Shown here: positions 35,346 to 53,002 of the stretch, one piece after another
Layout: each line of letters begins with the position of its first letter
How positions within the stretch are numbered: position 1 is the stretch's first letter
Origin: Nitzschia sp. pyKryTriq1
Lineage: Eukaryota > Bacillariophyta > Bacillariophyceae > Bacillariales > Bacillariaceae
DNA: 64,000 nucleotides
Direction: 5' to 3'
NCBI GenBank assembly: GCA_956465555.1
Contig: OY101121.1
Span: 2,132,722-2,196,721 of the forward strand
Notes under the pieces: generated by a model
Database searches by the model: none
Seen by the model: the letters and a program-made list of their open reading frames with translations, nothing else
Told to the model about the DNA's origin: nothing
Program-made: the position numbers and the translations under genes

Positions 35346-37533
35346 CTACTCTCGTTTCTTGGCCGTTTCTTTGGTGTACGAGAGGAGATACTTTCGCCGC
35401 TGGAGTCGAATGGCCAGAGATTCGGGCACGGCTGGAATGAGGGCCTGCAAGAGAAGACCAGCAACAATCAAGGCTCTTTCCAATCCAAAAATGATCAAAA
35501 TGGCAATCCATCCCTTATCGTGGACCATATGAGTGACCCCCTCGCCATCGCGAATGTAAAAGTCAGGCAAAAATTGCATCATTTGGTCGCTGGTAAAGCC
35601 AAACAGCATACAGTTCGTCAGACAACTGGACCATACTACGACTTGCAAGATGCGCTTCCAAACTCCAATATCATGAATGCGTTCTATGGCCAAGGGTTTT
35701 TGGCACAAGTAAGTCAACTTGTAACTGTCGCATCGAATTTCTACCCACACGGCACCGGCCATAATCAAAGAGGCCAAAGGATAGGCCGACGCAAATAGAG
35801 TCACGTAGCCAAACTGAATCATGATTTCCATGTAGTCATCAAATTGCTCGTAGTCATCCAAATGTAAGTCGTGAGGATGATCCTTGTCATTCTTGTCTCG
35901 ATAATGGAGTACGTAGGGCACAATAACTTCCATCGCCAATCGTCGAAAGCTATCAATATTAAAGACGGCCACCAACTCGTCCCGAAGTCGTTCCACGTCT
36001 CGTTCATAAAACGCCAAATAAAACAGAACAATATAGCAATCAAAGGCTTCAAAGAGGAACCGTTTCAAAATAAGAGAATTGTCGTGGGCCCTGGAGGTTT
36101 CATGGTTCTCCCAGTCAGTAAGCTTTCTCGCAACTCGCCGATACAAGGCATTGAGTGTCAAAATGCAAAGGGCGTGCAAGATCACCGGGATGTAGCACAT
36201 CCAATTGGAATTAGAATCAAGCCAAGCTCCTGCTTCGGACAGTTTGGCAAAGTGTCCAAAATAAAACGGATGATAGTGATTCTTCGGACGAATATACCCT
36301 TGCAAGTTTAAGGAGAGAATCATGACAAAAAAGGCCACTCCTAGCATGAACGATGTAACCATGGCACTCGCCAAGTATTGGAGCTTTCGTCGATAGGGAG
36401 GATAGTACAATTCAGGCTCACCTGTCACAGGCGATGTTCGGGTGACTCCAACAAACTCGGGTCGACGGTGAGAGTAGAGGCCACCCTCGACATCATAATC
36501 CTGTTTCACCACCTTGCTCAATGCATCATTTGACGACAACTCGAGAGTGCCAAACTGATAGGCGAGTTCAAACTCTTTCCGTTCCCAGAAGCGATATAGT
36601 AGTACAGCCCAGACGAAGCAAATGAGGCCGTAGAATGGAGTGTACTGAGCGAAACACGACGAAAAAAATGCATATTCTGGTGTGAGAGCCAGAATACGCC
36701 TAAATGAGTAACACTTCACTGACTCGTCGGCAGAATCATACCTCATCCTCATCAAGAGTGTCATGTCGATATATTCGAAATAGAAATATAGAGAGACCCA
36801 CAATCCCCAATCGCCCCAACCACTGGCCCAAAAAGCCCACGAACGCAAAGTAGTAGGCAATTTGCGGTCCATAGTATGCGTCGATTTCTTCCAATGGCGG
36901 CATCATCCTTGAAAGTGGATACCACGTGTCCTTCTGAACCATGACTTTTTCTTTGTCCACATGGAGGGGTGTCAAGACATCAATCCAGCCGTTGGATTGC
37001 AAAAGATACCTCAAATTCGAAGAGACCCCTAGGCTTTCAGGATCTTCTAGCGACAGTAAGATTCGAAGTAGATTTGTGTCGGTGACCGAAATCAAATCCA
37101 ACAGACCCAGCACCAAATGGAATCGCTCATAGATCGAAAATATCCCATTTACACCCAGCCCACCAACACTACTTGAAGTCGTCGACGAGTAGCGAAAGTC
37201 GTTTCGATTTTCGACCGTAAAATAATCCATGATGGTTTCCACCGCCGAGGATGATGACGGCCCACGGATTCGTCTTTTCTTTACCAAACGGTCACGTTCG
37301 GCTTGCCATTCGAGCGCTCCTTGAGTTGCAGTGAGCAAACAAATATCTTGGGCAGGCGTTGGAACTAACACTAGCTGGTGCTTTTCGAAATCGCTACATA
37401 TCGCGTGGATCAATTTTGGATGCTTTTGGGCCTTCCGGCTCCAACGGACGAGCACGATGGGACATTTTTCGGACGGGGGGAGCGCCACTGTCATTCCCTT
37501 ACGCAAATAAGAGTATTGTCGAGAGGACATCAT
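35346..37533 (-). CDS. Anoctamin (TMEM16) family membrane protein
   Basis: Two exons (37533-36742, 36644-35346) join in phase 0 to 696 residues; the acceptor CGCTCAG is preceded by a good pyrimidine tract. Two larger frames overlap on the track, but only this join keeps both. Residues 1-225 form a cytosolic N-domain. Helix 1 region is YYGPQIAYYFAFVGFLGQWL, the anoctamin hallmark. After the splice come YTPFYGLICFVWAVLLYRFW, then ERKEFELAYQFG, again typical. At least seven further helices follow. The calcium-site acidic residues expected in late helices may be among E/D in LIMAGAVWVEIRCD and GLERALIVAG. Family members are calcium-activated chloride channels or lipid scramblases. Which applies cannot be told. 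Confidence 0.85.
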
Positions 37534-38760: not shown

Positions 38761-39997
38761 ATTTACATTTTGTATTCAAAATTTGTAATTGATCTCCGCC
38801 TGGATAGCTCAAAGCTAAGCGGCTCTTGCTGATCGAATCGAATGATCTTCTGGTGGTGGTGGTGGTGCGGGCAAGTGGAACGTGGGAGTCATGGGCGCCA
38901 TCATACCGGAACTAGTATCTACTGGTAGTAATACTAGCTGCTCTTCTTCCTCGTGAATACAAGCCAGAAAGCAGTCCATGATATTTTCGGCCTCTCGCTG
39001 ATCTTCAAGACCGACTGCATGGGCCCAGACTTGACAGCTCGCACTCACGGCATTGTACACGTGGGCGATGAGCTGTTCATCCCAAAGCCCCCCCCGTTTA
39101 GATTGGCGATCTTGTTCCTCTAGTACTGCTCGGATGGACAAGGATCTGTTCTTGGACTTGACTAGAGAATGGACTTGGGTGTGGGATTCGAGACCTCGGG
39201 CACAATACTTTTTGTTCTTTAGCCTGGCACCCTGATCCATCTTGCGCACTTGTTTGCAGCAGGACTGCGTGATTTCCGAGTATTCTTCTGGTGTGTACCA
39301 GGATCCTAGATACTCTTCGTCGGACATGTCTTGGATTGCGATCGTAGGTCGAACTTGTGCTGTCTGAGAGAAGGAAACTCTCTTTTTTTGCTGCCGTCTG
39401 CTGGTGGTGGATGTTGGCGTCACGGAGACACTCGAAGAATCCTCGCAGCACGTGGTGACAGTGGATCTGCTGTGTGTGGAAGCTGAGGGAGGTATGTAGC
39501 GCATGGCATCGAATGAAGCCTTGGCAATGCCTTCTAGAACGGCAGCACTTTTGTGCGTCTTCGAGTTCTCCGCGGATTTGTGCTCAGTAGTAGAGCGAGG
39601 GAAAGCATCGTTGAGTGCACTGATGGCGGCTTCGTTTTCGCCCCGTCTCTTTGCCAAGGGGCAACTAATGTTTCGCGGAAGCAGTTTCAAACCAAACTTG
39701 TTGTTTGATGCCATGGTGTTAGAATATGATAAGCACATCGTGTATTTGTGATTGATGATGATGAGAGAGAGAGAAAGGTGGTTCGTCGTAAATTGTGTTT
39801 GGTAGTGACAAGAACATGCAATTCCTTTTGGATTGTTTTGATAAAAACATTGTTCTTCGAGAATCTCCGATGGGGCAGTTCTCGTCACCATAGGTTTGGG
39901 GAGCCAAAGGGCGGCAAGAAGGGCGACTCTCGGGGTTTACGGAGTTCTGGTCAAGAGAAGAATTGTGGAATGCTTGGTTATTCGATTTAAGGATCGA
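38761..39997. repeat. Left arm of a large inverted repeat
   Basis: Reverse complement of this arm matches 41104-42397. Homology covers a whole gene plus about 260 bases upstream and about 55 downstream. The arms are about 1.1 kb apart. Confidence 0.85.
38815..39738 (-). CDS. Uncharacterised diatom-type protein, paralog A (YTPEEY/RGLE family)
   Basis: A single exon encodes 307 residues from MCLSYSNTMASNNKFGLK; the MC[LV]S[YQ]S start is shared with both neighbouring paralogs. The conserved core is KKRVSFSQTAQVRPTIAIQD, then DEEYLGSWYTPEEYSEITQS, then CCKQVRKMD and YCARGLESHTQVHSLVKSKN. I recall such VSFS...W-Y-T/S-x-E-E and RGLE blocks in many uncharacterised diatom proteins. No enzymatic motif, signal peptide or membrane helix is present. 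The C-terminus after a Pro run ends SIRSARAA. It lies in the left arm of an inverted repeat whose other arm holds paralog B. Function is unknown. Confidence 0.7.
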   Translation of the reverse strand: MCLSYSNTMASNNKFGLKLLPRNISCPLAKRRGENEAAISALNDAFPRSTTEHKSAENSKTHKSAAVLEGIAKASFDAMRYIPPSASTHSRSTVTTCCEDSSSVSVTPTSTTSRRQQKKRVSFSQTAQVRPTIAIQDMSDEEYLGSWYTPEEYSEITQSCCKQVRKMDQGARLKNKKYCARGLESHTQVHSLVKSKNRSLSIRAVLEEQDRQSKRGGLWDEQLIAHVYNAVSASCQVWAHAVGLEDQREAENIMDCFLACIHEEEEQLVLLPVDTSSGMMAPMTPTFHLPAPPPPPEDHSIRSARAA

Positions 39998-41104: not shown

Positions 41105-42397
41105 CGATCCTTAAATCGAAAAACCAAGCATTCCACAATTCTGTTGACCAGAACTCCGTAAACCCCGGCATCATGGAGATATTCTCCAAGCAAGCGAGCA
41201 ACAAGAACAACATTTTTATCAAAACATGTAGAGTCCAAAAGGATGGATTGAAGATTGAATGTCGCAATTACGAGTAGACACTATTGCCGGTGCAATCAAG
41301 ATAATTTACGACGAACCACATTTCTCTCTCTCTCATCATCATCAATCACAAATACAGGATGTGTGTATCATATTCTAACACCATGTCATCCAAAAACAAC
41401 AAGTTTGGTTTGAAACTGCTTCCGCGAAACATTAGTTGCCCCTTGGCAAAGAGACGGGGCGAAAACGAAGCCGCCATCAGTGCACTCAACGATGCTTTCC
41501 CTCGCTCTACTACTGAGCACAAATCCGCGGAGAACTCGAAGACGCACAAAAGTGCTGCCGTTCTAGAAGGCATTGCCAAGGCTTCATTCGATGCCATGCG
41601 CTACATACCTCCCTCAGCTTCCACACACAGCAGATCCACTGTCACCACGTGCTGCGAGGATTCTTCGAGTGTCTCCGTGACGCCAACATCCACCACCAGC
41701 AGACGGCAGCAAAAAAAGAGAGTTTCCTTCTCTCAGACAGCACAAGTTCGACCTACGATCGCAATCCAAGACATGTCCGACGAAGAGTATCTAGGATCCT
41801 GGTACACACCAGAAGAATACTCGGAAATCACGCAGTCCTGCTGCAAACAAGTGCGCAAGATGGATCAGGGTGCCAGGCTAAAGAACAAAAAGTATTGTGC
41901 CCGAGGTCTCGAATCCCACACCCAAGTCCATTCTCTAGTCAAGTCCAAGAACAGATCCTTGTCCATCCGAGCAGTACTAGAGGAACAAGATCGCCAATCT
42001 AAACGGGGGGGACTTTGGGATGAAGAGCTCATCGCCCACGTGTACAATGCCGTGAGTGCGAGCTGTCAAGTCTGGGCCCATGCAGTCGGTCTTGAAGATC
42101 AGCGAGAGGCCGAAAATATCATGGACTGCTTTCTGGCTTGTATTCACGAGGAGGAAGAGCAGCTACTAGTTCCACTACCAGTAGATACTAGTTCCGGTAT
42201 GGCACCCATGACTCCCACTTTCCGGTTGCCAGTGGTGGTTGATCCCATCGAGCCGCAAAAAGTTTTTCCCGCATCGATCACCGCACCACCGTTGTCACCA
42301 CCAACAAATTATTCCATTGGATCAGCAAGGGCCGCTTAGTAGCTTCTTAGGGCTATCCGGGTGACAAATCACAAATTTTGAATACAGTATGTAAATA
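41104..42397. repeat. Right arm of a large inverted repeat
   Basis: This matches the reverse complement of 38761-39997. The central coding part is close to identical, while the gene's 3' end and parts of the upstream flank have diverged. Confidence 0.85.
41359..42339 (+). CDS. Uncharacterised diatom-type protein, paralog B (YTPEEY/RGLE family)
   Basis: A single exon encodes 326 residues from MCVSYSNTMSSKNNKFGLKL. It is nearly identical to paralog A from the start to LACIHEEEEQ. It then diverges: the tail is longer (RLPVVVDPIEPQKVFPAS and PPLSPPTNYS) but again ends SARAA. An alternative frame of 117 codons (41649-42002) is also identical in both copies, so the DNA itself is unchanged there and purifying selection on protein alone is not the cause. 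This points to a recent duplication or gene conversion. Function is unknown, and both copies look intact. Confidence 0.7.
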   Translation: MCVSYSNTMSSKNNKFGLKLLPRNISCPLAKRRGENEAAISALNDAFPRSTTEHKSAENSKTHKSAAVLEGIAKASFDAMRYIPPSASTHSRSTVTTCCEDSSSVSVTPTSTTSRRQQKKRVSFSQTAQVRPTIAIQDMSDEEYLGSWYTPEEYSEITQSCCKQVRKMDQGARLKNKKYCARGLESHTQVHSLVKSKNRSLSIRAVLEEQDRQSKRGGLWDEELIAHVYNAVSASCQVWAHAVGLEDQREAENIMDCFLACIHEEEEQLLVPLPVDTSSGMAPMTPTFRLPVVVDPIEPQKVFPASITAPPLSPPTNYSIGSARAA

Positions 42398-43998: not shown

Positions 43999-44868
43999 CT
44001 ACGCTGCCCGCGCCGAATGGATAGATGTGCGTCTTTGCCAGCACTGCGGTGCCACACTTGAGGAATCAGTTTTAACAAGCTCCATTTGGACTGCTTGGGT
44101 TGGAGCTACAAACGAAAGTTCATCAAAGTCGTCACTGGCATTTTCTGCTTCGCGTTGGTCTGCAAGTCCCATGATGCTTGCCCACAGCTGTGAGCTCGCG
44201 CTGGCGTCACGGTAGAGGTGCGCAATGTCATCCGCTACTTGGATACCCTGTCGCATTTGCCGATCTTGCTCGGACAATGCAGCTTGGATAGCATCTGATC
44301 GAGTCATCTGCTTTATCAACGCGCGGATGTGTGTGTGCGTTTCAAGTCCGCGAGTATAGTCATTGCTCTTCAGACGATCGCCACGGTCGATCTTGTGGAT
44401 GAGTTTGCAACAGGACTGCGTGATCTCCGCGAATTCTTCTGTTGAATACCATGCCTCGCTGTACTCGGCATCGGAAATTTCCTCCAGAGAGATAGTGGGA
44501 TGGACTTCTACTTGTCTGCAAAAAGAGACGCGCTTCGTTTGCGAGGAGGAGGCAGGGCTATCTGAACTTGACACCGTTGTCGAATCAGATGTTGAGACAC
44601 TGCAGCTGCTACTCATGTCGGTTGACGCAGTAAAAGAGCGCCGCACTGCATTTATTGAAGCCTTTGCAAACCCATTGAAAACGTTGTTACCAAGAGTTTC
44701 GGATTCGCCGCAATTAGATTGGCGAGCACCAAACATGGATGCTACTTTGATCTTCTCGCCACTTCTCTTTCCCCGAGGCTTTGCGATATGACTGCTAAGA
44801 TTAGAGATTGAAAATGCTAGACCAAAGGTGGAGTTTGATTTGGGTTGTTGAGATTGCGACACACACAT
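43999..44868 (-). CDS. Uncharacterised diatom-type protein, paralog C (divergent)
   Basis: A single exon encodes 289 residues from MCVSQSQQPKSNSTFGLAFS. It aligns with paralogs A and B along its length: KRVSFCRQVEVHPTISLEE, then YSEAWYSTEEFAEITQSCCK, then YTRGLETHTHIRALIKQM, then DQREAEN, and the tail SIHSARAA. Identity is only moderate, so this is an older duplicate than A/B. What stays fixed across all three (start MC-V/L-S, VSF core, ITQSCCK, RGLE-HT, SARAA end) marks likely functional elements. No known domain. It is probably a family-specific adaptor or regulator, but that is a guess. Confidence 0.7.
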   Translation of the reverse strand: MCVSQSQQPKSNSTFGLAFSISNLSSHIAKPRGKRSGEKIKVASMFGARQSNCGESETLGNNVFNGFAKASINAVRRSFTASTDMSSSCSVSTSDSTTVSSSDSPASSSQTKRVSFCRQVEVHPTISLEEISDAEYSEAWYSTEEFAEITQSCCKLIHKIDRGDRLKSNDYTRGLETHTHIRALIKQMTRSDAIQAALSEQDRQMRQGIQVADDIAHLYRDASASSQLWASIMGLADQREAENASDDFDELSFVAPTQAVQMELVKTDSSSVAPQCWQRRTSIHSARAA

Positions 44869-46370
44869 GTTGTTTCTATTCTATCAATCGATTGTATGAA
44901 ACGATAGTAAGCAAGGGTGCTCGTCGATGAACAATGTGTGAGAACCACGAACCACGCACGAGAACTCTGAGACAGATAGAAGAATTGTGAGGGATTCTAG
45001 CCATTGTTGCTCCTCCGTCCGGTCCGGGGAACTAATACGGTACGGAACAGGTTCTCCAAGATATATTCCCGCCGGATGTCGTCGAATTCTGCTGCGGCGG
45101 GCAAGCTTGCAAGGGCTCTAATACAAGACGCCCCGAAACATAAATGTTTTAGTCCATCTATCATCTATCTGCTGCAACCACTTCGACAAACGGAAGAACT
45201 AACGACGAACGATGAACCTTCAATATGGGTCAACTTCTACTTCTGTCTGTACAGTTAGTACAGTACAGTAGTTCTACTTTTCGATCCTACCTGTACCGGT
45301 AGCTGGTTCGACTTGCTTGAAGTCTACCAGAGTACGCACGACTCGTAGTAGGATGATGGAGTAATTTGTTTCTTTCGAATTCCAAGCAAATTCTCTTTCT
45401 TTCTACAGTAGCTAGCAGTCTCTACTCTACTCTAGAGTAGAGAGCGAGAGTGGAGCTCAGTTTGAAGATAATTTTTGTGTGAAGGAGCTACAGTAGCAAA
45501 CCCGGTACTGGGATATTGCAGATATCATACTCGCACTATGAGTACTGTTTGTGGAAGTCAGGTTCGCCTCGAGGGTCATTCACAAGAGAAATGATTCGAG
45601 AAGCCATATGTATGATTTGCGATACAAAATATCACCGAACTTGAAGTTATATTAATCCGTCGGATGATAAACAATAGAGCATACTGGCCCCACCATGATG
45701 TTAGGTGTTGTGTCGGGGTTCGCCTTGGAAAACTTCGAACTTTCCTCCAGAAGACAAAGCCGGAGAGCGGGGTCGGTAGGGACATTATCATCTGTGCTAA
45801 AAGGACCTCTACCAGCTACAGGTACGGTTCGTATGTACGGGACTACTGGTACATACAGAACACTGCGTACCCGCGATACCGGTACAGTACCAGTAGGTAT
45901 TGCAGCATGCTGGGCCCGTTTACGACAAGCTGGTTGCAATTGATTTCTTCGACTTCTGCTTCGACTGCGGCGAACCGCGAGGTCCCGAGGTCCGACCTAC
46001 AGTACTGGTAGCGAGCGAAAACCGGTAGTAGACTAGACCTACCGGTAGCGAAAAAGAGCAGGAAAGAAAAAAGAAAGATCCAAACCGTCTTGCGGTCGCC
46101 CCTCACATTGACTTCTTGGACCACATTTTTGGCCAATCGTTTTCAGTCGGGAATGCCATTCCCGCGACTTCTGACACACGAAAGATCTTCGTCTATGTAC
46201 CATAGCACCCACTCATAAACAATAAAACTGACGACGATGACCATATCTCTCACCGCAGCAGCGATCATAGACAGTACTCGCAACTCGCAACTGTCTCCAA
46301 CCGACTGTTTTACTGACCCAAGTCCAAGCGTTGGTCCTATAATACTGGTAGTATATCAAACAACAATAAA
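44869..46370. other. Gene-free region with several short-word islands
   Basis: No gene in 1.5 kb. GTACAG/TACCGGTA words lie at 45240-45310 and 45820-46040, and CTCTACTCTAGAGTAGAG at 45420-45440. The right end holds the promoter of the FTO-ASCH gene. Confidence 0.45.
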
Positions 46371-47380
46371 ATGGGGAAGAACAACAAGCCAAAGAACAAG
46401 AAGAAGAAAACGGCGAATGATGATCATCGTCATCCTCACCATCAACACACCAGCAACTCCCACAAACCCGATACTACCGATACGTCGCGTCCAGCAAACA
46501 ATCCATCTTCATCAGCGTCATCATCGGTCCCTCTTCCTCCCTCTTTTCCTGCTCATTTATCCCGTCCGCCGGATAATGATTTTTTACTGGACCAGCCTCC
46601 CTTTCGAGAATCCTTCCAAGAGGCACTCGAAACCTCCTATGAAGGTTTTGTGGTCGATGATTCAACAACAATGAAAGAAGCATCGGTTCAGAATTGTTTA
46701 GAGGAGATGCAGGCGCAGCATTATTTTCGAAGAGATGTCACGCAACCCTTTGGATTGGGCACCAAGTGCGCCAAGACGTACGTCACAAGATGTTTGGTCG
46801 GTGGTCCAGGAACGACCTACCGATACCTAGGATTGCGCATGTTTGCTCATCCCTGGAAAGAAATAGAAGCAGAAGCATCATCATCTACGAATACGAATAC
46901 TGGCACCAATAAAAAGGAGTATAGCAGCAGCAACAGCAACCGCTATAATACATCCAAGTCGACCATGACGAAAACAGTTGCCACTACCCAGACGATCCAC
47001 CAATTATCGCAACTCTTGTCGGAACGTACCAAGACTCACTTACAGGAACTAGACCAGAAGCGACAACGTCGCGGTGCACCTTTGACGCAAGGCCGATCAT
47101 GTTTTGATATCTGTTTGATCAATTGTATGGACCCATCAATGCAAGGCCTCAAGTCGGAACCATCTCCCACTCTTTCGGATCTGAAAACAACGGTCAGCTG
47201 GCATGCTGATTCGAGTTTGGAACACTATTCGACCATTGCCGTCTATCAAACATTGGTACCAATAATGGACGGCCATGGTGCAACAAAAACGTCACCCCCC
47301 ACTCCAACACCGTCCACAAAGAATTCGAAACGAAAGGGTCGACATCAGCCACAAGAAGCCTGCAGCATGATGGACCAAAA

Positions 47381-47415
<35 letters not shown>

Positions 47416-49142
47416 TGACGACGACGACAAGGGACCAGTGGTACGTGGCCATGCGTGTTACACCCCATGCCGAGGGTCCTACCGTGGGGAGTTTGAAACG
47501 CAAAACATCGCTTCAATCGAGCGTCGATCAGTCCATTCCACCCATTGCAGCATCGTTACCATCTGGATCGGCCTACTATCTTTTGGATGATTTCAACCAT
47601 CATCACCAGCATACGGTATTATTATTGAAAAACGGTCATAATGACAGCAGCGAAACATCGTCCTCATCGTCGTCATGTATTCGATATTCTTGTACTTATC
47701 GCTTACTAAGAGATTCACACAATGTGGAATATATGATTCGGCGATGCCAATCGGCCGTCTCCCAATTTCACAAGAAGGGTCTCAAGTTGTGGCGGTCCGA
47801 GCAGCTACTGTTGACAGATATTGAATCGGAATGGATCCGGCAATTCTACATTCAAGGATCCCAACATTACGATTTACTATGGGAGGCGTACTGGAAAGAG
47901 CCAATGTTGGCGTTGTTGCGGTATTGGAGTCGATTGGAACATCGGACTCAACAAACAATTGACTTGCTTCAACTTGCGGCTCGAGGAAAGTGTTGCCTTG
48001 AAAACAATACTGCTATTTCTACGGGTGGCGGCTGCTCTGGTGATGCGCCGAGCAAGGCCGAGCGCAAGGCACGAGAAAAGCAGAAAAAGGCGCTGGCTAC
48101 CGTTCAAGGTTTACTCCAACGAAGTTCCGAGGACGTGGGCACGATGACGAACAGCAGCAACGTAGATCTGTACGAGTCCATGGCGGAACTCTTGGAGGAA
48201 CGCGCACAGCTCCGAGCATTGTGGGCGAAGCGAGAAAAGGATCACGTGTTTACAGAATTGTCTCCGGAACTACGACCCATACCACTTCCCTTTCGATTTC
48301 TTGGAGATGATAACAAGGACAACAACAACATCAATGGCAATCCCCAGAAATCATCTTCCGTGGAAAGTGCCACGTCTCCGCTGCCGGGAGATCCTGACAA
48401 GCTTCAAGAGCTGGCCGCCACTTTGCGGGCTTACGGAAAAGCCTTTGTGTCTGGACGGCCCGATGATCTACCAATTCTTGAAGTGACAAAAATGTTGAAT
48501 GTGCAAGCATTACCTATCCAAGACAAGAAAACCAGCAGGGCTAATGATGAAGATCCACACGCCAAGGCATTGGACTGGTCTGGCTGGGCCCAACCCCATG
48601 TGTCGTTTGGATTGGAACTGCAAGATCCATGGGCCTCCGCAGTGATGGATGGGCGAAAGGAAATTGAAACACGGTCCTATGATTTGCCACCCGCTCTTAT
48701 CGGTAAGCGAATCTGGATTTTGGAATCGCCCTCTGGCACCGCCGGAGTGAGTGCCATGGGGAATATCATGGACCTCACGGGTGGCAACAAGAGCTGTTGC
48801 AGGGTACTGGGATGGTGCATCTTTACTTCTGTGATTAGGTACACTTCACGAGCTGCATTTGAAGCCGATGAATGCCGTCACCTAGTATCTTCCAACAGTG
48901 GATATGCTTGGAAAGATGATAGGACCAAGCACCTATTTGGGTGGGTAGTTGGAAAGTACGGCCGGGTCGGCAACATCAATGGATCGCCCCCGTCGTTATT
49001 TGTTTCGGCAACTCGTCGAATGAGATCTCTCTTTGAATTGAAACCGCCATCAAGTCACAACAAGCGCAAGTCGGCTGATCGATCATCTCCATCTGGGAAA
49101 AGAAAAGACGGCAAAGGTCCCACAAAGAGAAAAAGGTATTGA
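46371..49142 (+). CDS. FTO: FTO-type 2-oxoglutarate dioxygenase fused to an ASCH domain
   Basis: A single exon encodes 923 residues. After a Lys/His-rich disordered head, residues about 70-470 match the FTO catalytic domain: SCFDICLINCMDPSMQGLKS, then VSWHADSSLEHYSTIAVYQT with iron ligands H278 and D280. PSGSAYYLLDDFNHHHQHTV carries distal ligand H414 in the HQH context. IRYSCTYRLL carries R438 and R444, matching the 2-oxoglutarate-binding arginines. The helical FTO C-domain follows (ESEWIRQFYIQGSQHY). Residues about 740-890 form an ASCH/PUA-like RNA-binding domain (LQDPWASAVMDGRKEIETRS, then GKRIWILESPSG). FTO removes N6-methyl (or m6Am) marks from RNA. FTO homologs are known from vertebrates and marine algae. 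The ASCH fusion suggests built-in RNA recognition. A KRK-rich tail suits nuclear import. Confidence 0.85.
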
Positions 49143-49260: not shown

Positions 49261-50337
49261 CTACGTGAATAAGTTAGAACTAGCAGTAAGTTCCCATAGT
49301 TGTTCGAACGTAGCGACCAATCCACCAGCCTCCACAATACGCTGTCGAAGAAATATGTCGTCCGTAGCTACTATCGTCGTTTGTTCTTGTCGGTGTTCAA
49401 ATAGTTCTGGGAGGTCTCCTTCCAATGAATGACAGACGACATCTCTGTTCAAGAGATGTTGAATCCGTAGCAATGTCTTAGCATCATCGCCAGAAGAAGT
49501 AGTATTAAGCCCAACGAAGACGCAAAAGACGGATTCAGGTCTCATCAATCCCAATCGTCTGACCAATTGCCGTGACCTCCCCGCCCCATCCGAATTACGT
49601 CGAAACACAAAAGCTTCTTTGTGGAGGTTGATACCATCATCCTCGGATGAATGATACTGTTGATGATTCAAAATTCGATCGCATGCTTCTTGTACATCCA
49701 TGGTGCACGTCATATTTTGGTCGGACGACTCATTAGTATCAGAAGATGATGAATTGTCGTCGTTCGACTGCCGCCGTCGCCCTCGTTGTCGTCTTTTCTC
49801 CACAATTTCCACAATCACATTGTCTGCTTCCTCATGGATGGGAGTCACCTTGAGGCCAACCCGATGGGTCAAATTCCATTCCTTACCCGCTAGTCGTTTT
49901 TGTTCATCACCACATTTGCATTTTTGGTCCACTCCAAGCCCATCAAAGTAAATCTCTGCACGTCCTATTATAGCTTGTGTGGCCAATACAAAGCGGTCCA
50001 AGGCTGGTACCAAATGGATTCGATCGCCACAATTTTCGTCGTTGACCACGTGCAGCAAGGATATGCCGGTGTTGGTGGCTGTTGTAGCAGCGGTCTCGTC
50101 GACAGTAGAGCTCAGAAACAACTCTCTATCGAATCGGATAGGACCATTGCATCCATCGACAAGGAACAAAACGCTCCCACAGTCATAGTCATGCCTATCA
50201 TCGTCCTCACCACTCGCCCTGGGGCTGCTCGTTCTTCTCTGGCGAACTTCATCATCACTGTCGTTCCTTTTCTTCCAAGAAGGACCCATCGGAACCAAAC
50301 GGAGGAGAGAATAAAACCAACTGCTACTATCCATCAA
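49261..50337 (-). CDS. NYN/PIN-like domain protein (YacP-type nuclease candidate)
   Basis: A single exon encodes 358 residues. The fold elements are a first strand with acid (VLFLVDGCNGP, D61), a middle VTPIHEEADNVIVEIVE, and a late TIVATDDIFLRQRIVEAGGL followed by FEQLWEL. Spacing and acids (D61, an EEAD-x-x-I, a T-D-D) are those of the NYN branch of PIN-like nucleases, as in bacterial YacP/Rae1. A charged insert (KRRQRGRRRQ and a Ser/Asp run) breaks the centre. It would cleave RNA, metal-dependent. It converges on FTO-ASCH with about 120 bases between stops. Assignment rests on motif order only, so a catalytically dead relative is possible. Confidence 0.55.
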   Translation of the reverse strand: MMDSSSWFYSLLRLVPMGPSWKKRNDSDDEVRQRRTSSPRASGEDDDRHDYDCGSVLFLVDGCNGPIRFDRELFLSSTVDETAATTATNTGISLLHVVNDENCGDRIHLVPALDRFVLATQAIIGRAEIYFDGLGVDQKCKCGDEQKRLAGKEWNLTHRVGLKVTPIHEEADNVIVEIVEKRRQRGRRRQSNDDNSSSSDTNESSDQNMTCTMDVQEACDRILNHQQYHSSEDDGINLHKEAFVFRRNSDGAGRSRQLVRRLGLMRPESVFCVFVGLNTTSSGDDAKTLLRIQHLLNRDVVCHSLEGDLPELFEHRQEQTTIVATDDIFLRQRIVEAGGLVATFEQLWELTASSNLFT

Positions 50338-50615: not shown

Positions 50616-53002
50616 CTATCGTAGTTTGAGATTCTTCCATTCTTCCGGGAACAGATAATCGGGAATTCGGATATCATGACGAAAGGCATTCTCCAAAAAT
50701 ATATCCGAGGTGTAGGGCCGATCTTGAAAGAAAATAGCTTCACGGGGAACGTCCTCGAGCAGCGTCCATTCCTTGCGCTCGTCGTCCGCTGGAATGACGA
50801 GTGTATAAAGGGTTCGGCCCTCTACCTGTTCGTATCTCAAGATCTCACAATCCACGGATCCATGTTCGAGCCAATCATCATTCCAAGTATCATCTGTGAT
50901 AGTTTCCGGGTGCTTTGCTAACCAGTTTCGTCTGACTTTGTCGTCTTGAAAGTTCTTGTGAAATTTCACCATCAAGTTCGATGGATAATTCCCTTTCATT
51001 TTTTCAAACTCGGTCCGATACACATGATCAAATCGCTGATTCATTTCAAAGGCGGAAACATACGTGTCGGCGCCCTCGACCGGCTTCCATTCTTCCTCGT
51101 GTTTTTGCCATGCTGCCTCCCACTCATCCCCATAGTCCAAGAATATTTCCTCCCCAGGTTCAATGTCCTTGATTGCCACCAACTCCATCGCTAATTGAGC
51201 ACTGCTATAGCTCTCGAATTCCGTCACATTCTTCTTCAACATCTCCGGTTTGTGTTGACTTCGTTCGGGGGCTGCCCATTGGAGTTTTACATTGGCAAGC
51301 GTTTGATTGTGATTGATCAAATGGAAGACTGGCCCATAGGGCGATAACAACATGGTAGAATCCCGATGGCCCAAACAGTAGTTCAAAAGTAGTTGCGGAG
51401 GCCTAGGTCGTTCCTTGTCCCCCGTCACTGGTCCCCCCGGCGGTGCATGTAGCTCGTACATGTTCAAAACTTTCCGATCGGGAATATGAATCAATGGAAT
51501 GGGAAGAATGATGGCCCCTTCTGGCAAATGCCGCGCCGCAAACGCCCCATGTCCCGCCTGACGAATGGTGGATTCTCCAAAATACATGTGATCCGCACAA
51601 ACGCCATTCTCGGCGAGCCATTCGGGACTTCGATGCATTTTTGATTTCTTGAATCCGATCAATGTTTGTTCGTACATGGCCTCATAGTCTTCTTTGGGCG
51701 GCAAGGCTGCCATCGTCGGTGAATCTGTCCAGGGAGAATTCAAGACAAAGGTATCCCATAATTCGGTTGCCACCTGCTCGGACAGTAATGGCTTCGAATA
51801 CGTAGGCTGGGGGGCATTGGGAGGTGGTTGTTCGTCGTCTGTTTTTGTTGTAGTAGCAGCAGGAGCGCTATCACCACCACCTGAGGTACGTCTCGGCCGT
51901 CGACTTTTGTTATTGTTGTTGTTGTCCGTTGGCTGATGCCCCCCGGAGTGGTTCCCAAGAATGTTTTGTCGAAACTTTCGATATAATCGATCGGCTCGCG
52001 CATGATCCCCCCTGACCGGAATCGGTCCTAATATTTTTTTACGACCCAAAAACCACTTATCTCCATACGAAACAAACAATTCTTGTCCCGGATGAATGGC
52101 AACATGATTACTATCATCATTGTCTGATGTTGCTGGCTGTTTTCCTTTTCCTGTGGACAAGTAGTTTTTCTTTGATTTTGCTTTTGTGTATCGACTATGA
52201 TAATAGGTAAAGGCACCGGCTCCGGGATCGCTCCGTCGATGCAAGCCTTGGGGGATGCTGTAGGTTGCATACATTTCATCGGCGTTGACAAAATCCATAA
52301 AGGAATTGGCGGCAGCACCAAAGCCTGGAGACGCCACATTGGTCTCGACAATTCCTAAATTATCCATATACATGGGTTTCGCGTTCTTTTTGGTTTTGTT
52401 TTGTTGGAAAGTAGGAAGTAGGAGCAGAAAAAAGAATCCAAGATTTTTGTGAGAGGAGACAGACAGCAAGAGTAATTCGCTGTAGTAGACTACTCGTAGC
52501 AGTATGGGAGCAGCAGTCACTTCACGTATTTGTTCGTACGTACCCATGTATATTCATCCCATAGAAAAAAGAGACGAGCGTCCTCGTTGTCGTTGTCATT
52601 GCCATCGCCATTGTGTTTGTTCTTGTCCTTGTCCCTGTTGTGCGCCAATATATCCACAATGGGTACCATATGATCTCCCGCCATCATAAAGGGCTGCCCG
52701 GCGGTGAATTCCTTGCCCGCAAACATTCCAATGCCCGTTCCCTCTAACGTCGAAAGCGCCAACCACACTCCACATTCATCATCAGGATTGTTGTTGGACT
52801 TCAATGTGCTGCGGCTGGTGGTGGTGGTGCTGCTACTACTACTGCAAGTACCTTCCGTGTCGTCGGCACAATCCGAGGACGGCCCATCACCTTTTTCTTT
52901 TACTTCTGCTGCTGCAGCTGAAGCTAAAAGTGGAAGAACTTTGCAGCACTGCAGCCCCAAGAGAGTCACGGATGCCACAGCATACAGTCTTCGAAGAATC
53001 AT
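50616..53002 (-). CDS. Secretory double-SET domain protein
   Basis: Two exons (53002-52544, 52385-50616) join in phase 0 to 742 residues; the join reads DEYTWNAKPMYMDNLG. The N-terminus MILRRLYAVASVTLLGLQCC to SAAAAE is a signal peptide. Residues about 80-320 contain one SET-like unit (STLEGTGIGMFAGKEFTAGQ, then SPGFGAAANSFMDFVNAD, then IHPGQELFVSYGDKWF). About 410-590 contain a second (GESTIRQAGHGAFAARHLPE, then HLINHNQTLANVKLQW, then IEPGEEIFLDYGDEW). Each keeps an N-H/A-N type motif and a final G-[ED]E-[IL]F-x-x-Y-G-D. SET proteins methylate lysines, but a secretory signal is unusual for a histone enzyme, so an ER or cell-wall protein substrate (diatom silaffin-type proteins carry methylated lysines) is a thought, not evidence. 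Confidence 0.75.

What the first reader, a model, noticed from the sequence alone, without database searches (positions are those of the whole stretch)
46371..49142. FTO RNA demethylase fused to an ASCH RNA-binding domain
The protein keeps the iron triad (H278, D280, H414) and both 2-oxoglutarate arginines (R438, R444) of FTO, and carries a C-terminal ASCH/PUA-like domain. FTO homologs are known in marine algae, but I know of no description of this fusion. ASCH domains bind RNA, and the related YTH and EVE folds read modified bases, so one polypeptide might both recognise and erase a mark.
Basis: partly seen in the sequence, partly recalled or inferred. Interest (0 to 1): 0.85.

Follow-up and report, generated by a model that had tools for sequence, protein, structure and literature searches.

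The report
Diatom FTO demethylase with ASCH tail
A diatom gene encodes a relative of the human FTO demethylase with a nucleic-acid-binding ASCH domain on its end; this fusion was already reported in several algae in 2015, so it is a further example of a known protein type, with an altered substrate pocket that is worth a test.

Summary
Window 46371-49142 (+) is one uninterrupted 923-codon frame in a diatom genome, with strong FTO_NTD and FTO_CTD matches and all the iron and 2-oxoglutarate ligands named. A TRIP4-type ASCH domain starts near residue 744. That match is modest: 19.3 bits for the whole protein (cut-off 21.2), 22.2 for the tail alone, 23.5 in the genome scan, where it is the only ASCH place listed.

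The novelty claim fails. Tung et al. [quoted passage not shown]

Added here: the genome holds a second, more canonical FTO without ASCH; no ASCH was found in its TRIP4-like zinc-finger ORF; and both diatom FTOs have Ser where human FTO has the base-contacting Glu234, so m6A erasing cannot be assumed.

Likeliest reading: an FTO-type demethylase whose ASCH domain helps it hold single-stranded nucleic acid, or links it to an ASC-1-like machinery. That the ASCH reads the erased mark is untested. New member of a known kind.

The parts
46371..49142 (+). Whole reading frame, 923 codons plus stop, no intron needed
   Evidence: upstream in-frame stop at 46314; codon usage prefers this frame in 14 of 15 blocks
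46611..47258 (+). FTO_NTD catalytic domain, first stretch (residues 81-296), holds H278 and D280 (codons 47202-47204 and 47208-47210)
   Evidence: Pfam PF12933, E 2.7e-51 for the whole protein; residues checked
47256..47423 (+). Low-complexity insertion in the catalytic domain (residues 296-351), of which the paralog has only four aligned residues; a further 15 residues (372-386) are also absent there
   Evidence: alignment A1
47388..47702 (+). FTO_NTD second stretch (47388-47621), taken here on through H414 (47610-47612), R438 (47682-47684) and R444 (47700-47702)
   Evidence: PF12933 second match G000:C7:2180109-2180342; residues; extension to R444 by alignment
47730..47981 (+). FTO_CTD match, residues 454-537; by alignment with the paralog the domain probably continues further, to about residue 640-700
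   Evidence: PF12934, E 8.6e-18; continuation inferred from A1
48600..48959 (+). ASCH domain, about residues 744-863; Pfam-matched part 748-791 (48612-48743); motif GRKEIETR at 48651-48674
   Evidence: PF04266; TRIP4 ASCH similarity; positions. The end at residue 863 is an estimate by eye
49050..49139 (+). Basic C-terminal tail (residues 894-923), nuclear-localisation-like by eye
   Evidence: sequence; no predictor run

Best explanation
This is a diatom FTO-family Fe(II)/2-oxoglutarate dioxygenase that oxidises an N-methyl group on a base in single-stranded nucleic acid. A TRIP4-type ASCH domain at its C-terminus adds binding to single-stranded nucleic acid, or binding to an ASC-1-like complex, and so brings the enzyme to its substrate. 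Shown here: the single frame, the family, the complete Fe and 2-oxoglutarate ligands, the ASCH similarity, and a second FTO without ASCH in the same genome. Inferred: enzymatic activity, nuclear location, the ASCH role (from TRIP4 work on human proteins) and the substrate. The architecture was already reported in several algae in 2015.
For: FTO_NTD and FTO_CTD well over cut-off; FTO chains are the best PDB matches, E 5.1e-22. H278, D280, H414, R438, S440, R444, N251 and Y402, and R140/Y150/Y152 (human R96/Y106/Y108), are present; human H231, D233, H307 are named and R96, E234, Y106, Y108, R322, the other human numbers are recalled. ASCH. Published fusion, plus FTO-TRIP4 co-immunoprecipitation and yeast two-hybrid (PMC4354923, passages). 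TRIP4 raises the DNA affinity of ASCC3 about tenfold, and a TRIP4 fragment without the C-terminal part that holds ASCH does not (PMC10076317, passages). Candidate writers and a reader exist in this genome: 4 PCIF1 places over cut-off, three of them strong (NPPF motif seen in the one copy read), one METTL16-family (PF05971) frame, one YTH place.
Against: ASCH is below the Pfam gathering score when the whole protein is scanned and covers only 44 of 103 profile positions. Neither structure prediction was usable (pLDDT 34.6 and 32.7). No relative was found in the collections searched, which hold viruses, phages and prokaryotes, so conservation could not be measured. Ser replaces human Glu234. TRIP4 fragments with ASCH but without the zinc finger did not bind ASCC3 stably. 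A large human interactome study mentions TRIP4 once, in its introduction, as an earlier reported in-vitro FTO binder (PMC8565353, one passage).
Confidence: 0.62

Rival explanations
1. Reader-eraser: the ASCH domain recognises the same methylated adenine (m6A, m6Am or 6mA) that the FTO domain removes, so that one polypeptide finds and erases a mark.
For: ASCH, YTH and EVE belong to the PUA superfamily, whose members flip and inspect bases; ASCH as 6mA reader has been suggested (PMC11037411, passages, citing Iyer et al. 2016, which was not held). PCIF1-like writers are present.
Against: No ASCH domain had been shown to read methyladenine when that paper was written. The ASCH activities I saw reported differ: ac4C hydrolysis by YqfB, single-stranded RNA cleavage by ZmASCH, nucleic-acid binding by TRIP4. 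E234 is Ser in both paralogs.
Confidence: 0.12
2. The ASCH tail is mainly a protein-protein module that ties FTO to an ASC-1/RQT-like machinery (ribosome or transcription quality control), taking the place of the ASCH domain that the TRIP4-like gene of this genome seems to lack.
For: FTO binds TRIP4 in mammals. In this genome the zf-C2HC5 ORF (G000:C4, near 2044351) ends 10 residues after its zinc-finger match and no ASCH was found in it; FTO-ASCH is the only ASCH place listed. ASCC3 is reported to be needed for ALKBH3-dependent demethylation of mRNA.
Against: In the passages seen, the FTO epitopes that bind TRIP4 were mapped, but not which part of TRIP4. The genome search is exon by exon and can miss weak ASCH domains; the TRIP4-like gene model is a bare ORF. 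Recalled, not tested: TRIP4 homologues in some other lineages may also lack ASCH.
Confidence: 0.2
3. An altered-substrate FTO: with Ser in place of Glu234 and a changed L1-loop region the enzyme acts on a base other than m6A, and ASCH directs it to that substrate.
For: S281 for E234, and Ser in the paralog too; the L1 region reads SEPSPTLSDL against EEPYFGM-G in human FTO. E234 contacts the purine in human FTO.
Against: The R96, Y106 and Y108 equivalents and the L1 lysine K216 (K261 here, by count from H231) are kept, and the paralog keeps a more human-like L1 loop. Other residues could replace E234; the structure could not be modelled.
Confidence: 0.2
4. Two separate genes or two proteins made from one open frame: the ASCH part is translated from its own transcript.
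For: About 210 residues lie between the FTO_CTD match and ASCH, with methionines at 592, 604 and 708. No transcript data were available.
Against: No stop in 923 codons; codon usage prefers the frame through the linker; the same architecture is reported in several algae.
Confidence: 0.04

Closest known systems
Algal FTO with C-terminal ASCH domain (Tung et al. 2015, PMC4354923; text passages and legend of Supplemental Figure 8A)
   Same: Same domain order: FTO, then a C-terminal ASCH domain
   Different: The passages seen name no species or sequences, so identity could not be compared; they mention neither a second ASCH-less FTO nor the E234 change
Human FTO
   Same: Both Pfam domains, Fe ligands, 2-oxoglutarate ligands, R96/Y106/Y108 equivalents
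   Different: ASCH tail, long low-complexity insertions, Ser for E234, changed L1 loop
Human TRIP4 (ASC-1) ASCH domain
   Same: N-terminal block around PWAS, G.K..E.RS and R.WI, 14 of 36 identical
   Different: The rest of the domain aligns poorly; TRIP4 also has a zinc finger and a lasso peptide, not seen here
E. coli YqfB, ASCH ac4C amidohydrolase
   Same: Lys and Arg of the G.K....R block (K763, R768) align with K21 and R26
   Different: Nucleophile Thr24 is Glu766 here, so the YqfB triad is not kept
Second FTO of the same genome (G000:C3, L002:745-2274, 509 aa)
   Same: FTO_NTD and FTO_CTD, HADSS motif, 33% identity
   Different: No ASCH match, no long insertions, stronger FTO scores (205.2 and 99.4 bits)

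Membership tests
FTO family | FTO_NTD (PF12933) and FTO_CTD (PF12934) over cut-off | tested here: met
   174.9 and 65.2 bits against 27 each
FTO family | HxD...H iron motif and the 2-oxoglutarate arginines | tested here: met
   H278, D280, H414, R438, R444
m6A eraser of the human FTO kind (a function, not the sequence family) | Base-contacting R96 | tested here: met
   R140
m6A eraser of the human FTO kind (a function, not the sequence family) | Base-contacting E234 | tested here: not met
   S281, and Ser also in the paralog
m6A eraser of the human FTO kind (a function, not the sequence family) | 2-oxoglutarate-dependent demethylation of m6A or m6Am | not testable with these tools
   needs an enzyme assay
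ASCH domain | PF04266 over gathering score 21.2 | tested here: met
   22.2 bits tail alone, 23.5 in the genome scan; but 19.3, below, in the whole-protein scan
ASCH domain | PUA-like beta-barrel fold | tested here: inconclusive
   AlphaFold2 pLDDT 34.6 for the tail alone, no usable model
YqfB-type ASCH amidohydrolase | Lys21-Thr24-Glu74 triad with Arg26 | tested here: not met
   Thr24 position is Glu766 in alignment A3; residue roles from PMC6972931, passages
Algal FTO-ASCH fusion of Tung et al. [quoted passage not shown]
   description. One polypeptide rests on the open frame, not on a transcript

The most novel reading that the evidence does not exclude
Diatoms moved the ASCH domain from TRIP4 to one of two FTO copies, and this FTO-ASCH, with Ser for Glu234, both recognises and removes a mark other than ordinary internal m6A, for example the PCIF1-type cap mark, while the ASCH-less FTO does the general work: a self-guided reader-eraser.
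Probability: 0.08. Interest if true: 0.75.

Novelty: new member of a known kind. Interest (0 to 1): 0.33.

Why it matters
The fusion is not new, but this genome gives a clean natural comparison: two FTO paralogs, one with and one without ASCH, in one diatom, with PCIF1-, METTL16- and YTH-family places in the same genome. It makes the published FTO-TRIP4 link testable from the other side, since FTO carries the only ASCH place listed while the TRIP4-like ORF shows none. The shared Ser at human E234 warns against calling algal FTO an m6A eraser without an assay.

Tried and rejected
Relatives: viral contigs with the whole protein and with a two-paralog FTO alignment gave 0 confirmed of 2 and of 103 pattern matches; genome contigs with the ASCH part and with the FTO alignment gave 0 confirmed of 21 and of 17; phages by tblastn with the ASCH part gave no match at E <= 1. 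These collections hold prokaryotes and viruses, so this says nothing about other algae. Two AlphaFold2 jobs gave unusable models, pLDDT 34.6 (tail) and 32.7 (whole protein with the paralog); no fold search was run on them. phmmer of the tail against PDB listed only matches that are not ASCH. NCBIfam listed nothing at E <= 1 for the protein or its tail. The bacterial promoter/terminator scan is not meaningful for a diatom and is not used. MT-A70 (METTL3/14) gave no candidate, but the search rang in no control genome either, so absence is not claimed; WTAP had 4 matches, none over cut-off. The ASCH tail as a YqfB-type hydrolase was rejected because the Thr is Glu. Of 13 papers opened (passages only; for PMC4358723 also the outline), PMC6112310 held 'ASCH' only in its reference list and PMC10447785 only as part of an author's name; PMC12024952 and PMC11312118, on diatom and microalgal erasers, held no 'ASCH'. 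In the codon-usage script the two genome loci that I meant to add to training were not found under their file names, so training rested on 8 window ORFs, 4562 codons, themselves unverified gene calls. One search printed its results and then stopped on an error in an unneeded last line.

Full report
What is there. The window lies in a eukaryotic assembly of 40.65 Mb in 20 contigs. I call it a diatom because 8 silicon-transporter (PF03842) places are over cut-off. Window 46371-49142 (+) is a single open frame of 923 codons, with an in-frame stop upstream at 46314. The 3' end of an ORF on the other strand lies 118 bases beyond its stop. A codon-usage score trained on 8 other window ORFs prefers this frame in 14 of 15 overlapping blocks, among them the blocks between the FTO_CTD match and the start of ASCH. 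The preference is slight in block 781-860 (0.01 against -0.02 for the next frame) and in block 301-380, and in the last block (841-920), which includes the basic tail, a reverse frame scores higher. The pieces are most simply one protein; no transcript was available.

FTO part. Pfam gives FTO_NTD 174.9 bits and FTO_CTD 65.2 bits against cut-offs of 27. Of the 13 PDB sequences listed at E <= 1, 12 are FTO, the best at E 5.1e-22. R140, Y150 and Y152 match human R96, Y106 and Y108; human E234, the residue after D233, is S281. A review says that R96 and E234 hydrogen-bond the methylated purine and that mutating such residues abolishes activity (PMC7835257, passages). The L1-loop lysine K216 is kept (K261, by count from H231), but the rest of the loop differs. 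So an active dioxygenase is likely, but its base specificity is open.

ASCH part. From about residue 744 the tail resembles ASCH domains. The Pfam score depends on how it is scanned: 19.3 bits in the whole protein, under the 21.2 cut-off; 22.2 for the tail alone; 23.5 in the genome scan, where it is the only place listed at E <= 10. Only positions 1-44 of the 103-position profile match. The same block resembles the human TRIP4 ASCH: 14 of 36 identical, BLASTP E 2e-4 for one comparison, and a local score of 62 reached by 0 of 2000 shuffles of the tail and 0 of 500 of the whole protein (maxima 50 and 57). The second half of the domain is assigned by position only. phmmer against PDB did not find ASCH chains, and both structure predictions failed. 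The catalytic Thr of the ASCH hydrolase YqfB is Glu766 here, so I do not expect that activity.

The rest of the genome. There is a second FTO (L002:745-2274, 509 aa) without an ASCH match and with higher FTO scores, 205.2 and 99.4 bits. The two are 33% identical and share the HADSS motif. A TRIP4-like zf-C2HC5 ORF on contig 4 ends 10 residues after its zinc-finger match and shows no ASCH; the gene may have exons that a bare ORF does not show. PCIF1 has 4 places over cut-off, three strong; the one I read has NPPF. There is one YTH place, one METTL16-family frame and 12 AlkB-like places over cut-off. MT-A70 gave none, but without a working control.

What is known. Searching the paper library for FTO with 'ASCH domain' gives one paper, and it also ranks first in a wider search: Tung et al. 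2015, PMC4354923. [quoted passage not shown] They report that FTO and TRIP4 co-immunoprecipitate and interact in yeast two-hybrid through FTO residues 30-48 and 249-269. TRIP4 raises ASCC3's DNA affinity about tenfold, and a fragment without the part that holds ASCH does not (PMC10076317, passages). ASCH as a reader of N6-methyladenine is a suggestion without proof (PMC11037411, passages).

Judgement. The best reading is an FTO-type demethylase whose ASCH tail strengthens or directs its hold on single-stranded nucleic acid, or ties it to an ASC-1-like complex. Activity, location and the role of ASCH are inferred. It is a new member of a known kind. The ASCH-less paralog, the TRIP4-like ORF without ASCH and the E234 change are details that I saw in none of the passages read from 13 papers, but the library lacks most subscription journals, and no supplementary files were read.

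Noticed in passing
L010:349-2577 (G000:C1 near 219584): The only YTH place found lies in an ORF with a DCD (Dev_Cell_Death) domain after YTH and a CCCH-zinc-finger-like ORF upstream, a CPSF30-YTH-like layout by eye.
   Followed up: partly
G000: C3:3073680, C1:4213272, C6:1279965, C7:161020: Four PCIF1 places over cut-off in one diatom genome, three of them strong.
   Followed up: partly
window 38815-39891 (-), 41359-42339 (+), 43999-44868 (-): Three ORFs within about 6 kb that look related by eye; the first two are near-identical on opposite strands, the third more distant. No Pfam hit for the one scanned, 41359-42339.
   Followed up: no
window 49261-50337 (-): ORF of 357-358 codons convergent with the FTO gene, no Pfam family at E <= 0.01; its C-terminal part looks PIN/NYN-like by eye.
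   Followed up: no
window 50616-52547 (-): SET-domain protein, 36.3 bits, near the FTO gene.
   Followed up: no
window 35346-36872 (-): Anoctamin family protein, 305 bits.
   Followed up: no
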